From Desulfurispirillum indicum S5 (GTDB lineage: Bacteria > Chrysiogenota > Chrysiogenetes > Chrysiogenales > Chrysiogenaceae): 64,000 bases of DNA. The notes under the pieces are model-generated. The model was not told where the DNA came from and did no database searches. It saw only the letters and a program-made list of their open reading frames with translations. Every line of letters starts with the position of its first letter. Position 1 is the stretch's first letter. This document shows, one piece after another, positions 36,520-49,020 of the stretch. A program made the translations under genes and the position numbers. The DNA lies in contig NC_014836.1 in the NCBI RefSeq assembly GCF_000177635.2, positions 2,588,001 to 2,652,000 of the forward strand, written 5' to 3'.

Positions 36520-36836
36520 GATTGAACCACGGAAAACACGGAAGGCACGGAAAAAGAGAGAAAGACATACCTCTCGCCAAGGCGCAAAGTCGCCAAGGAA
36601 AGGCAGGAGGATAAAACCGCAGAGGGTGTTTTTTACCGCGAATGAACGCAAATGGACGCGAATAACTTCCAGTATGAGCAGCCAGTAAGAGGGTTTACCA
36701 CAGATGAACGCCGATTAACGCAGATGAATGCAGGGGAGCGGGGGTACGGAAAAGAGAGAAAAACATGCCTCTCGCCAAGGCGCAAAGTCGCCAAGGAAAG
36801 GCAGGAGGATAAAACCGCAGAGGGTGTTTTTTACCG
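36520..36836. repeat. Mosaic intergenic repeat block, with the start of a second 198-bp unit
   Basis: The block is built of recurring modules: (ga)accacggaaaacacgga; ctctcgccaaggcgcaaag with ccaaggaaaggcaggagg; ccgcgaatgaacgcaaatgg; and accacagatgaacgccgatt. A unit of 198 bp starting near 36613 is followed by a second copy starting near 36811, which is interrupted by the group II intron at 36837 and resumes at 37543. Related blocks occur at 39310-39560, 44810-45050 and 48200-49020. No coding sense is visible. Confidence 0.8.
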
Positions 36837-37542
36837 GTAGAGTAGAGAGCAGGTTTCACCCTGCTCCCCCTCCTCAAACCGGACATGCGGATTTCCCGCA
36901 TCCGGCTTTCCTGCTGCCTTCACCTGAAGGAACACGCAGAATTATCTGCTTCGCCTGCAGGTACAGCTGCTTCATCAGACCAGGGATTCTTCCGGCAGCA
37001 TGGCTTTTCCATTACGGGTACTCACGACTCTGCAGGGTTTGTTATCGAGTGAGTCCACTCAAGCAAACATCCCATTTGCCAATAACTCAGCATGACAACA
37101 GTAAGGCCCCTTCGCTCCACCAGCATTACCCGGTTTCAGCACTACTATGGGCCTCTCCGACTCCCACATTACAGGAAAACATGGTTATGCATTCCCATGC
37201 ACCCTTTTGGCTCGAAGCCACAGCAATATGGGCCTCCCAGGTTCCTGACCAATCTGTCGGTACGCGCTGCCTCCAACCACCCCGGAGAGTCCGATGCATG
37301 CACTTGTCTGTTGCTTCTGCAACGATTATAGGCTTCACCTCATTCGGCAGGATGGCCACTCTCAATTAGCGTTAACGAGGCCGAATCGAGTTCACTTGCG
37401 TTGCGGCTCGCACCTTCGCAGTTACGGGGCTTCGTACAGAAGATTACTCCGATGCACGCCCGGCTGCTACATAGTCAAACAGACAATTACTATGGTAAGC
37501 TCCTTTCAGCTTACGAGATTGGCCAGACTTAGCCTGGCGCAC
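36837..37542 (-). ncRNA. ORF-less group II intron, 706 bp
   Basis: On the minus strand the element starts GTGCGCC (5' consensus GUGYG) at 37542 and ends CTACTCTAC (AY end) at 36837. A 34-base domain V lies at about 36876-36909: it begins AAGCCGGATGCGG, has a GAAA loop, closes with CCGCATGTCCGG and contains the AGC triad. It is followed by a domain VI stem (AGCAGG/CCTGCT). It interrupts a repeat whose uninterrupted copy stands 198 bp away, so both borders are exact. It is too short to encode a reverse transcriptase, so it must be helped in trans or be a fossil. Confidence 0.85.
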
Positions 37543-37740
37543 CGAATGAACGCAAATGGACGCGAATAACTTCCAGTATGAGCAGCCAGTAAGAGGGCTT
37601 ACCACAGATGAACGCAGATTCACGCAGATGAATACAGGGGAGCGGGGGTACGGAAAAGAGAGAAAAACATGCCCCTCGCCAAGGCGCAAAGCCGCCAGGG
37701 AAAGGCAGGAGGATAAAGCCGCAGAGGGGATATAACCCTC
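37543..37740. repeat. Continuation of the interrupted 198-bp repeat unit
   Basis: Sequence from cgaatgaacgcaaatgg to ggcaggaggat matches the unit at 36637-36810 almost base for base. It is the distal exon-side part of the repeat that carries the group II intron. Confidence 0.8.
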
Positions 37741-41600: not shown

Positions 41601-42710
41601 TTACATGGACAGAGCCTCCGGCTGTGCTGGCTGGTACAGTATGGCCGGAAGGACTCGTGGCCGTGAAACTCTTGTTGCAATGATTCCCATAGCTGCTCCG
41701 CAAACGGGACAAACGATAGATGGCCGTGGTTTTCTGTCGCGCATAAGCAAGCGCCATGGTTTTACTCGCAGTACCACTTGCAGCAGGCGGATCAGCTTTT
41801 TACTGCAGGCATGGAGAAACCCATACGATCTTGCTCGCCGGAATCCTCGGGGGAGTACATGGAGCATGAGCAGATAGAGAAAGTACTCGCCCGTGACGGT
41901 TCTGGTGCGATTTTCTGCGCTTTTGGCGTGGCGATACTGGAAGGTGACCATGCCGTCCTTGCAGTACAGGATGTCTTGTTCTCTGATAACACCTCGATAC
42001 AGGTAGCGACCAAGATAGATCAGTGCCTTTTCGCCATTACCTGCATCCTTGCAGTCAACCACCCACTGTTTCGGGCAATCATACGGAACTGGCAGTGTGT
42101 TTTCGACGAAACTTTGAAGCAACTTGGCTCGAAACACCCTGGCCAGCGCCTTGTGGCTAAACAGATACTTCCCGGACTTTTCCTTCCACATTCTGGTCTT
42201 CAGGTTGATGCTTGCTCCAGGCATGATTACGTGGATATGGGGATGGTAGTCCAGGGTTCTGGAGTGGGTGTGAAGGATAGCGGTAAACCCAGGTGATCCA
42301 CCGAGCTTTTTGTCATTACCGGTAAAGGATTTCAGAAGATCCTGCACGGCCGTGAACATCAGGGTGTAAACGGCTCTCTGGTTTTTCCATGCCATATCAC
42401 GCAACTGCCCAGGCAGGGTAAAGGTGATTAGAAAGTATTGACATGGCAGCCGCTTTTCAAGCTGGTTCTCCAGCCACTGCTGGCTCTCGTGGTTCTGGCA
42501 GTGGGGGCAGTTCCTGTGACCACAGGAATGGGGAATGTAGACATGCTTTGCACACTGGTGATCCGAACAGTGAGCTACCATGTGCGGTCCATGTGCCTGT
42601 CTGCACCGAGCCATGGACTCCAGTGCCTTGATATGGCTTGGCAGGAGGTTCTTCTGGTAAGTGCGCAGAAAGCTTTTCCTGAACTCTTTGATGATTGTGG
42701 AGAGCAACAT
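41601..42710 (-). CDS. IS91-family HUH transposase
   Basis: This 369-residue rolling-circle transposase has an N-terminal zinc ribbon (CSDHQCAKHV, HSCGHRNCPHCQ), the HUH motif in DYHPHIHVIMPG, and YLGRYLYRGVI holding the Tyr residues that cut DNA. Its ATG (42710) overlaps the recombinase stop as TAATG, so the two are translationally coupled; the longer frame from 42728 is not needed. The C-terminus has another CPVCG pair. Length is normal. Confidence 0.93.
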   Translation of the reverse strand: MLLSTIIKEFRKSFLRTYQKNLLPSHIKALESMARCRQAHGPHMVAHCSDHQCAKHVYIPHSCGHRNCPHCQNHESQQWLENQLEKRLPCQYFLITFTLPGQLRDMAWKNQRAVYTLMFTAVQDLLKSFTGNDKKLGGSPGFTAILHTHSRTLDYHPHIHVIMPGASINLKTRMWKEKSGKYLFSHKALARVFRAKLLQSFVENTLPVPYDCPKQWVVDCKDAGNGEKALIYLGRYLYRGVIREQDILYCKDGMVTFQYRHAKSAENRTRTVTGEYFLYLLMLHVLPRGFRRARSYGFLHACSKKLIRLLQVVLRVKPWRLLMRDRKPRPSIVCPVCGAAMGIIATRVSRPRVLPAILYQPAQPEALSM

Positions 42711-43621
42711 TATTTTCGCCCCCTCCACGTCAGGTCGAAAGAGTTCACAATGGAGTTGACGACCACCCTTGTATTATTGGCCGTTGTGGCAGTCAGGTGG
42801 GTGTACCTGGCAGTGGTCAGAATGCTGACATGGCCAAGAATCTGCTGCAGCTCAAGCAGATCTACTCCAGCTTCCAGCATATGGGTGGCATAACTGTGGC
42901 GCAGGGAATAGCATGATATTCTTCTCAGACCAAGATGCCGAACCACGCTTTGCATAGCAGACTGGATACCTCCCCTATCCAGAGGCAGATCAACCAGGTG
43001 GGCATTCTTCAGGCCCCTTTTCCTGCTGGGGAAAAGAAAGCAAGGATGCCGATGCACCGCCCAGAACTCTCGCAAGACCTGCAACGTCTTATCGGGCAGC
43101 GGCACCAAGCGATCCTTGTTCCCTTTGGCATCGCGAATATGCACCCGCATATTGCCTGTATCAATATCATCTACCGTAAGGCGGATACCTTCACCAAGGC
43201 GCAAGCCCATGCTGTAGCAGGTGAAAAAGAAGACCTTATAGCTCAAAGTGCTGGTTGCGGCGAATAACCGTCCGGCCTGCTCCACTGACAGAATATCAGG
43301 GATTCTGGAAGCTTTTGGGGGCTTAATCAGGAGGATATTCTCCCAAGGCTTGCGTAACACCTCGGAATAGAAGAATTTCAGTCCGTAGAGATCGAGCTTG
43401 ACCGCACTCCAGGAGTGCGTATCCAGAAGCTCGGTGAAATAATCAAGTAATTGATCGGATGAAAGATCACAAACGTTGCCATCGAAATAGTGACCAATGC
43501 GCCGGAGCGCACGAGCATAGGCATCAATAGTTTTAGGTTGCAGGCCCCCTAGCTTGAGACATTTGAGGTGCTTCTGGTACAGTTTGTTGAAACTCGGATC
43601 TTGCGGCATGGTGGTGTTCAT
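42710..43621 (-). CDS. Tyrosine recombinase of the IS91-like element
   Basis: This 303-residue XerC/phage-integrase-type protein has an N-terminal SAM-like DNA-binding domain (LQPKTIDAYARALRRIGHYF) and a catalytic half with box I Arg in YSMGLRLGEG, the beta-turn Lys in KGNKDRLVPL, Arg in YSLRHSYATHML, and the nucleophile Tyr in ILTTARYTHLT. It lacks the extra helix insert expected of integron integrases, so I do not call it IntI. It is coupled to the transposase downstream. Confidence 0.92.
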   Translation of the reverse strand: MNTTMPQDPSFNKLYQKHLKCLKLGGLQPKTIDAYARALRRIGHYFDGNVCDLSSDQLLDYFTELLDTHSWSAVKLDLYGLKFFYSEVLRKPWENILLIKPPKASRIPDILSVEQAGRLFAATSTLSYKVFFFTCYSMGLRLGEGIRLTVDDIDTGNMRVHIRDAKGNKDRLVPLPDKTLQVLREFWAVHRHPCFLFPSRKRGLKNAHLVDLPLDRGGIQSAMQSVVRHLGLRRISCYSLRHSYATHMLEAGVDLLELQQILGHVSILTTARYTHLTATTANNTRVVVNSIVNSFDLTWRGRK

Positions 43622-43754: not shown

Positions 43755-43811
43755 GTCCAACAAGCAAATGCAGCCGACGCAAAATACGCGCGGCTGATTT
43801 GGGCGTTAGCT
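43755..43811 (+). other. Integron attC site 5
   Basis: The left half TCCAACAAGCAAATGCAGCC pairs with the right half GGCTGATTTGGGCGTTAGC. The outer CCAAC/GTTAG boxes and inner CAAAT-CAGCCG arms match, with one extrahelical G on the left arm. Right core GTTAGCT at 43805. Confidence 0.85.
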
Positions 43812-43831
43812 GTCAAGATTGACCTCCGTGT

Positions 43832-43888
43832 CTTGAACAAGCAAATGCAGCCGACGCAAAATACGCGCGGCTGATTTGGGCGTTAGCT
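43832..43888 (+). other. Integron attC site 6, tandem copy of site 5
   Basis: The site repeats attC 5 base for base from aacaagcaaatg to the core GTTAGCT at 43882, exactly 77 bases later. The 77-bp unit contains nothing but the attC and about 25 bases, so it looks like an empty cassette or a tandem duplication. Confidence 0.85.
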
Positions 43889-43972
43889 GTCAAGATTGAC
43901 CTCCGTGTCTTGCAAGAGTAGTCATAAACCGACAAAAGTGATACTGTAGTGGCACTTTGAAGGAGGTAGCCC

Positions 43973-47979: not shown

Positions 47980-48276
47980 ATGAGCGGAGACTCTTCGATC
48001 GATCGTTTGGAAGCGTTTCGCTCTCTTCATCGGGTACACAACACGGTACTCGGATTCGTCGCCTTGGTGGTTTTTGCCACCTTCATCGTGAATAACGTTG
48101 CGGCGGTCGACTTGCCCAGTCGCTGCCGAACTAAAGGACACCCACTTTGCGCTGTGCGCCCCTTGCCTTCCTTGGCGGGCTTTGCGACCCCGGTGAGCGT
48201 AGCAAACGGGCGAGAGAATTGCTTCACTCTTCTGGATTTGCGTATATTCGCGTATATTCGTGTCCATTCGCGGTAA
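47980..48276 (+). pseudogene. Small membrane-protein cassette gene cut by a RAYT hairpin, copy 2
   Basis: Identical to the copy at 44622 over the first about 50 codons, including the membrane helix. It then runs into a single RAYT half-hairpin and the repeats. The single hairpin unit here, against the double one in copy 1, shows change since duplication. Confidence 0.5.
48129..48149. repeat. RAYT half-hairpin, single unit
   Basis: aactaaaggacacccactttg without the full 3' arm, at the same place in the duplicated segment as 44789. Confidence 0.7.
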
Positions 48277-49020
48277 ATCCGGCTGCTCCTCCCAACTGCC
48301 TTTCCTTGGTGCCTTTGCGAGCTTGGCGTGAGAAGTTGCCTTTTGCAGGCTGCTGAAAAACCCTCATCTGCGGTGTTGCCTGCGTAGCTTGAGGTATTTC
48401 TGCAAGCTGTTTGGTATTTGCCGCTATCTGCGTTCATCTGCGAAATCTGCGGACAATATGCCTTTCTTCTTCTGCAGTTACGTTTTTTGCCTCGTTGTCT
48501 TTGCGCATCTGTGTTTATCCGTGCCCATCCGTGGTTACAAGTCGCTTCTCTCCCATATTCGCGTTAATTCGTGTCCATTCGCGGTAAATCCGGCTGCTCC
48601 TCCCTCCCCACTGCCTTTCCTTGGTGCCTTTGCGAACTTGGCGTGAGGAATTGCCTTTTGCAGGCTGCTGAAAAGCCTTCATCTGCGGTGTTGCCTGCGT
48701 AGCTTGAGGTATTTCTGCAAGCTGTTTGGTATTTGCCGCTATCTGCGTTCATCTGCGAAATCTGCGGACAATATGCCTTTCTTCTTCTGCAGTTACGTTT
48801 TTTGCCTCGTTGTCTTTGCGCATCTGTGTTTATCCGTGCCCATCCGTGGTTACAAGTCGCTTCTCTCCCATATTCGCGTTAATTCGTGTCCATTCGCGGT
48901 AAATCCGGCTGCTCCTCCCTCCCCACTGCCTTTCCTTGGTGCCTTTGCGAACTTGGCGTGAGGAATTGCCTTTCTCTCTCTCAAAATTCGCGTCTATTGG
49001 TGTCCATTCGCGGTAAATTC
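48240..49020. repeat. Intergenic repeat array with 315-bp tandem units
   Basis: The block repeats with a period near 315 bases: ttgccttttgcaggctgctg occurs at 48337 and 48652, and atctgcggacaatatgcc at 48445 and 48760. A partial third unit ends near 48970. The words are the reverse complements of the modules at 36520 (attcgtgtccattcgcgg, cctttccttggtgcctttgc). No gene is supported here. Confidence 0.8.

What the first reader, a model, noticed from the sequence alone, without database searches (positions are those of the whole stretch)
36837..37542. ORF-less group II intron with a neighbouring empty-site copy
The 5' GTGCG, 3' CTAC ends, a 34-base domain V and a domain VI stem define a complete 706-bp intron on the minus strand without reverse transcriptase. 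It splits one unit of a 198-bp tandem repeat whose intact twin is next to it, so borders are exact to the base. Group II introns without their own protein are uncommon and need help in trans.
Basis: partly seen in the sequence, partly recalled or inferred. Interest (0 to 1): 0.75.

Follow-up and report, generated by a model that had tools for sequence, protein, structure and literature searches.

The report
Orphaned group II intron without reverse transcriptase
A complete self-splicing-type RNA element has copied itself into a scattered repeat family of a bacterial chromosome, yet no gene for the reverse transcriptase that such elements need to move was found anywhere in that closed genome, so it looks like a recently stranded parasite of a lost helper.

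Summary
Window 36837-37542 (minus strand) is a complete 706-nt group II intron without an open reading frame. Rfam finds domains V/VI (57 bits) and D1-D4 (51 bits) between the two borders. A D1-D3 consensus with eight relatives from IEP-encoding introns shows compensatory changes at 63 of 105 pairs. EBS1 (CGAATG) pairs with the 5' exon end (CATTCG), EBS2 (AACGC) with GCGTT, and domain VI has a bulged A at -7. Joining the flanks reproduces a 50-nt stretch of the neighbouring intact 198-bp repeat unit exactly.

The genome is Desulfurispirillum indicum S5 (one closed chromosome). It holds three copies. A second full copy is identical over 696 bp, sits in the same target motif with otherwise different flanks, and carries an IS. 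A third is internally deleted and carries the same IS at the same position. No reverse transcriptase or maturase domain was detected. The target motif belongs to a dispersed repeat: 45 sites against 2 in the control. Domain IV keeps a remnant of the IEP stop-codon region.

Best reading: a non-autonomous group II intron that recently retrohomed into dispersed repeats, driven in trans by a helper now lost. A known kind, but a rare orphan case. Splicing and transcription are untested.

The parts
36837..37542 (-). Complete ORF-less group II intron, 706 nt, GTGCG...CTAC (copy 1)
   Evidence: Rfam RF00029 and RF02005; exact empty-site join
37237..37537 (-). Domain I (approximate)
   Evidence: RNAalifold consensus with 8 relatives, columns 6-340; this intron keeps 85 of 99 ungapped D1-D3 pairs
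37163..37232 (-). Domain II (approximate)
   Evidence: consensus columns 345-436
37103..37155 (-). Domain III (approximate)
   Evidence: consensus columns 444-496, strongly conserved
36914..37100 (-). Domain IV with the IEP deleted; base helix CUGUUGUC / GGCAGCAG retained (approximate)
   Evidence: fold; comparison with IEP-bearing relatives
36920..36936 (-). Remnant of the 3' end of the deleted IEP gene, including the TGA stop position
   Evidence: part of a 71-nt, 86% identical match that begins inside the ltrA CDS of Nitrobacter plasmid NC_007959
36945..37009 (-). Probable frame-shifted remnant of the IEP N-terminus (LMKQLYLQAKQ against LQRKLYCKAKA)
   Evidence: suggestive only: 5 of 500 shuffles reach the score with the Mesorhizobium relative, 0 of 500 with P. 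caledonica, non-significant with most other relatives
37341..37346 (-). EBS1, CGAATG, in a domain I hairpin loop
   Evidence: complement of the last 6 nt of the 5' exon; the same alignment position pairs with IBS1 in relatives with different sequences
37369..37373 (-). EBS2, AACGC, in a domain I loop
   Evidence: complement of GCGTT directly upstream of IBS1
37543..37548 (-). IBS1, CATTCG, end of 5' exon
   Evidence: sequence
37549..37553 (-). IBS2, GCGTT
   Evidence: sequence
36876..36908 (-). Domain V (AGC triad, GAAA loop; two-base bulge reads UG where relatives have CG)
36839..36873 (-). Domain VI with bulged A (branch point) at 36843, position -7
36627..37728 (-). Two 198-bp intergenic repeat units, the first split by the intron; intact junction of the twin at 36638/36639

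Best explanation
This is an ORF-less group II intron derived from an IEP-encoding intron by deletion of nearly the whole reverse transcriptase gene from domain IV. It is a non-autonomous retroelement. Its RNA, spliced with help of an IEP supplied in trans, recognised the motif GCGTT-CATTCG^CGG of a dispersed intergenic repeat by EBS2/EBS1 pairing and retrohomed there at least twice; the two full copies are still identical. The helper is no longer detectable in the closed genome, so the intron is now stranded: it cannot be reverse transcribed by anything found here and, if transcribed, can at most self-splice. Shown: anatomy, exact borders, EBS/IBS complementarity, three copies, shared target motif, no detected RT or maturase domain. 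Inferred: past retrohoming, loss of the helper, present immobility, and any splicing.
For: Rfam hits on both halves. D1-D3 consensus with 63/105 compensatory pairs; this intron keeps 85/99 ungapped pairs against at most 56 in shuffles. DV-DVI z = -6.4 and bulged A at -7. EBS1/IBS1 6-7 bp and EBS2/IBS2 5 bp, with the EBS1 position covarying in relatives. Exact empty site. Copy 2 is 100% identical over 696 bp, in the same motif but with otherwise different flanks, so copying moved the intron and not the locus. 45 genomic sites within two mismatches of the target motif against 2 for the reversed control. No RVT_1 and no GIIM in the closed genome, while the same searches ring in 3 control genomes. 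IEP stop-codon remnant in domain IV. T. elongatus provides an experimentally tested parallel: ORF-less introns with IEP remnants mobilised in trans (PMC2882425).
Against: No RNA or splicing data. Copy 1 lies between two plus-strand genes, antisense to them, so its transcription is unknown. The domain V bulge reads UG in copies 1 and 2 where copy 3, the delta-proteobacterial relative and proteobacterial plasmid relatives read CG; the effect on catalysis is unknown. Identity of the two full copies could in principle come from gene conversion. 14 of 99 ungapped consensus pairs are broken in this intron.
Confidence: 0.8

Rival explanations
1. Dead relic: the intron arrived by horizontal transfer or with a now-lost IEP, and copies 1 and 2 were equalised by gene conversion rather than recent retrohoming; the ribozyme no longer splices.
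For: No RT detected. Copies 2 and 3 are disrupted by an IS, and copy 3 lacks intron positions 171-560. The domain V bulge deviates from relatives.
Against: Copies 1 and 2 share identical introns but unlike flanks, with only the short target motif in common; copy 2 carries the IS and copy 1 does not. Conversion would have to span 696 bp and stop next to the IS. The folding core and the EBS/IBS pairs are intact in copy 1.
Confidence: 0.15
2. Active intron served by an unrecognised helper: a divergent RT or another host factor in D. indicum supports splicing and mobility.
For: Perfect identity of the two full copies implies recent movement.
Against: RVT_1 and GIIM searches of the 99.99% complete single-contig genome are empty while control genomes ring. 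A search with a related IEP is also empty, though that search had no positive control.
Confidence: 0.04

Closest known systems
ORF-less TeI3 introns of Thermosynechococcus elongatus (PMC2882425)
   Different: T. elongatus keeps several intact IEPs that act in trans; here no RT or maturase was detected in the closed genome
C.te.I1 of Clostridium tetani (PMC4424553, PMC3919590)
   Same: ORF-less bacterial group II intron in a genome with no IEP-related gene
   Different: C.te.I1 lies in a surface-layer protein gene and splices alternatively; here there are three copies, two identical, the full-length ones in a dispersed intergenic repeat
IEP-encoding introns on rhizobial and Nitrobacter plasmids (L016, L017, L051), 440-aa IEP with RVT_1 and GIIM only
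   Same: same D1-D3 architecture; about 84-86% identity in patches at domain III and around domain V
   Different: they carry the IEP; overall RNA similarity to this intron is low outside these patches
Intron 3' ends in the delta-proteobacterial MAG JAFGGA01 (L018, L020)
   Same: near-identical domain V, same DVI type and CTCTAC|CGG junction, and flanked by a locally repeated sequence
   Different: contigs stop inside the intron, so presence or absence of the IEP is unknown; the only RT found there is a broken fragment

Membership tests
Group II introns | Domain V with catalytic triad and domain VI with bulged branch-point A | tested here: met
   RF00029 57.1 bits over the 40-bit cut-off; fold with bulged A at -7
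Group II introns | Domains I-IV fold | tested here: met
   RF02005 51.1 bits over the 49-bit cut-off; D1-D3 consensus with 63/105 compensatory pairs, 85/99 pairs kept; domain IV base helix in the fold
Group II introns | EBS-IBS pairing with the 5' exon | tested here: met
   EBS1 6-7 bp, EBS2 5 bp; EBS1 position covaries in relatives
Group II introns | 5' GUGYG and 3' AY ends, with an exact empty site | tested here: met
   GTGCG...CTAC; 50-nt joined site found in the neighbouring repeat
Group II introns | Splicing in vivo or in vitro | not testable with these tools
   needs RT-PCR or in vitro transcription
ORF-less bacterial group II introns mobilised in trans | No IEP, but remnants of one in domain IV | tested here: met
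   IEP stop-codon region conserved; the N-terminal remnant is only suggestive
ORF-less bacterial group II introns mobilised in trans | Related IEP-encoding intron in the same genome | tested here: not met
   no RVT_1, no GIIM; only three intron copies, all without an IEP
IIC introns (insertion after terminator hairpins) | No IBS2; insertion just downstream of a terminator stem-loop | tested here: inconclusive
   EBS2 candidate and repeat-motif target speak against it for the full-length copies; flanks were not scanned for terminators; copy 3 is flanked by an inverted repeat GTCCTTTTTG / CAAAAAGGAC

The most novel reading that the evidence does not exclude
A lineage of non-autonomous group II introns, present in Desulfurispirillum and in a delta-proteobacterial MAG, that uses dispersed intergenic repeats as its homing niche and outlives its helper RT. 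The repeat family gives a harmless, renewable set of target sites, and splicing is fully protein-independent.
Probability: 0.15. Interest if true: 0.65.

Novelty: new member of a known kind. Interest (0 to 1): 0.45.

Why it matters
Bacterial ORF-less group II introns nearly always sit in genomes with a related IEP; a 2015 review names C.te.I1 as the only exception (PMC4424553). This would be a further exception, and one whose copies show recent multiplication, so it catches the step between trans-mobilised satellite and splicing-only element. It makes a question directly testable: whether such an RNA splices without any maturase. The dispersed-repeat target also shows one way in which a retroelement avoids damaging genes.

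Tried and rejected
Phage records gave no related intron. The specific domain V pattern gave no viral contig and one GTDB genome, a delta-proteobacterial MAG whose contigs end inside the intron. Among 60 relatives, only one sister genus has weak relic matches, and neither sister genus reaches RF00029 or RF02005. One sister genome (G001) has three RTs that align to a group II IEP at only 26-29% identity and are not accompanied by RF00029 hits, so they were not taken as helpers. The idea that copies 2 and 3 share one IS insertion event was set aside because copy 2 is identical to the IS-free copy 1 while copy 3 is diverged; independent insertions at a preferred TAA are more likely. The literature search found no paper on group II introns of Desulfurispirillum, but the library holds open-access papers only, and the group II intron database (Zbase) could not be consulted.

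Full report
What was checked. The finding claims a complete 706-bp group II intron without reverse transcriptase at 36837-37542, minus strand, splitting one unit of a 198-bp tandem repeat. Rfam finds RF00029 (domains V/VI) at 36910-36837 and RF02005 (D1-D4) at 37503-37270, both over the curated cut-offs. The element starts GTGCG and ends CTAC. Joining the flanks gives a 50-nt sequence found letter for letter in the neighbouring repeat unit, with the intact junction at 36638/36639. The repeat is real: 281 bp at 95.7% identity, offset 198 bp.

RNA anatomy. DV and DVI fold at -42.2 kcal/mol, z = -6.4, with a single bulged A at -7. The 5' part was aligned with eight introns from proteobacterial plasmids that carry intact or, in some cases, degraded IEP genes. 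RNAalifold gives a D1-D3 structure of 105 pairs, 63 of them with at least one compensatory change. The intron in question forms 85 of its 99 ungapped pairs, against at most 56 in 200 shuffles. EBS1 (CGAATG, intron 197-202) lies in a domain I hairpin loop and is the complement of the last six bases of the 5' exon. The same alignment position pairs with the exon end in several relatives with quite different sequences (for example AAAAATC with GATTTTT in Cupriavidus, TTTTGC with GCAAGA in Nitrobacter). EBS2 (AACGC, intron 170-174) lies in another loop and pairs with GCGTT directly upstream of IBS1. By the anatomy this is a complete group II intron.

Origin. In the relatives, a 440-aa IEP with RVT_1 and GIIM domains and no further Pfam domain lies between two patches that match this intron: domain III, and a 71-nt stretch around domain V that begins inside the 3' end of the IEP gene. 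The TGA stop position of the IEP is still visible in this intron at about 621-623. A remnant of the IEP start (LMKQLYLQAK against LQRKLYCKAK) is suggestive but statistically mixed. The intron is therefore best read as an ORF-deletion derivative.

Genome context. The genome length, 2,928,377 bp in one contig, equals that published for Desulfurispirillum indicum S5, described as a single circular chromosome (PMC3368425). It holds three copies. Copy 2 (C1:1698391-1699086) is identical to copy 1 over 696 bp. Its first 14 bases lie upstream of an IS of about 0.92 kb with short terminal inverted repeats, and its flanks read GCGTTCATTCG | CGGTAAAA, the same target motif in otherwise different surroundings. 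Copy 3 (about C1:1058930-1060180) has the same IS at the same base, lacks intron positions 171-560 and lies at another target, TTTTTG | CGTGG. RVT_1 and GIIM searches of the genome are empty while the same searches ring in three control genomes. A search with a related IEP is also empty, but without a positive control of its own.

Target. The motif CGTTCATTCGCGGTAA occurs 45 times with up to two mismatches, against 2 for the reversed pattern. It is part of a dispersed repeat family. Both full-length copies use it. In a delta-proteobacterial MAG, two homologous intron 3' ends are followed by the same repeated sequence CGGAATCCATA... (about 50 nt alignable between the two sites), so insertion into a dispersed repeat may recur in this lineage.

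Mechanism. The best-supported account is past retrohoming of a non-autonomous intron into dispersed repeats with an IEP supplied in trans, followed by loss of the helper. Copy identity and EBS/IBS complementarity support the movement; the missing helper is an observation in a closed genome. Splicing, transcription and the loss event are inferred. The tested parallel is T. elongatus, where ORF-less introns with IEP remnants are mobilised in trans (PMC2882425).

Novelty. ORF-less bacterial group II introns are known: 281 of 2,381 introns in representative genomes in a 2022 survey (PMC8919778). A 2015 review states that such introns nearly always coexist with a related IEP and names C.te.I1 of Clostridium tetani as the sole exception (PMC4424553). 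The present case belongs to the known kind and adds a further orphan, with evidence of recent multiplication. More orphans may have been found since; only open-access papers could be searched. Structural class assignment and the effect of the UG bulge in domain V were not resolved.

Noticed in passing
window 36544-37728, 39384, 48244-49020; genome-wide: A dispersed modular intergenic repeat family with phrases such as TTCGCGTCCATTTGCGTTCATTCGCGGTAAA; 45 sites with up to 2 mismatches genome-wide, some in tandem arrays (315-bp unit at 48244-48973). Its own nature is unexplained.
   Followed up: partly
L008:7470-8391, L009:6945-7868, window about 1390-2316: An IS of about 0.92 kb with split transposase frames, inserted at the same TAA in the palindrome CCAGGCTAAGTCTGG of intron copies 2 and 3 (98.5% identical); a further copy lies in the window at another TAA.
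   Followed up: partly
window 36884-36885: The domain V two-base bulge reads UG in copies 1 and 2, but CG in copy 3, in the delta-proteobacterial relative and in plasmid relatives.
   Followed up: partly
L011:1501-1621: A degenerate relic of a related intron's domain I (70% over 122 nt) in a genome of another genus of the same family, which also lacks RVT_1 hits.
   Followed up: partly
L013, L014, L015 (G001): Three reverse transcriptases in another genus of the family, only 26-29% identical to a group II IEP; likely other RT types.
   Followed up: no
window 41601-43621 and 43759-43912: A tyrosine-recombinase-like ORF next to an IS91-like transposase ORF, with a perfect 77-bp tandem duplication close by; names are by eye, no family search was run.
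   Followed up: no
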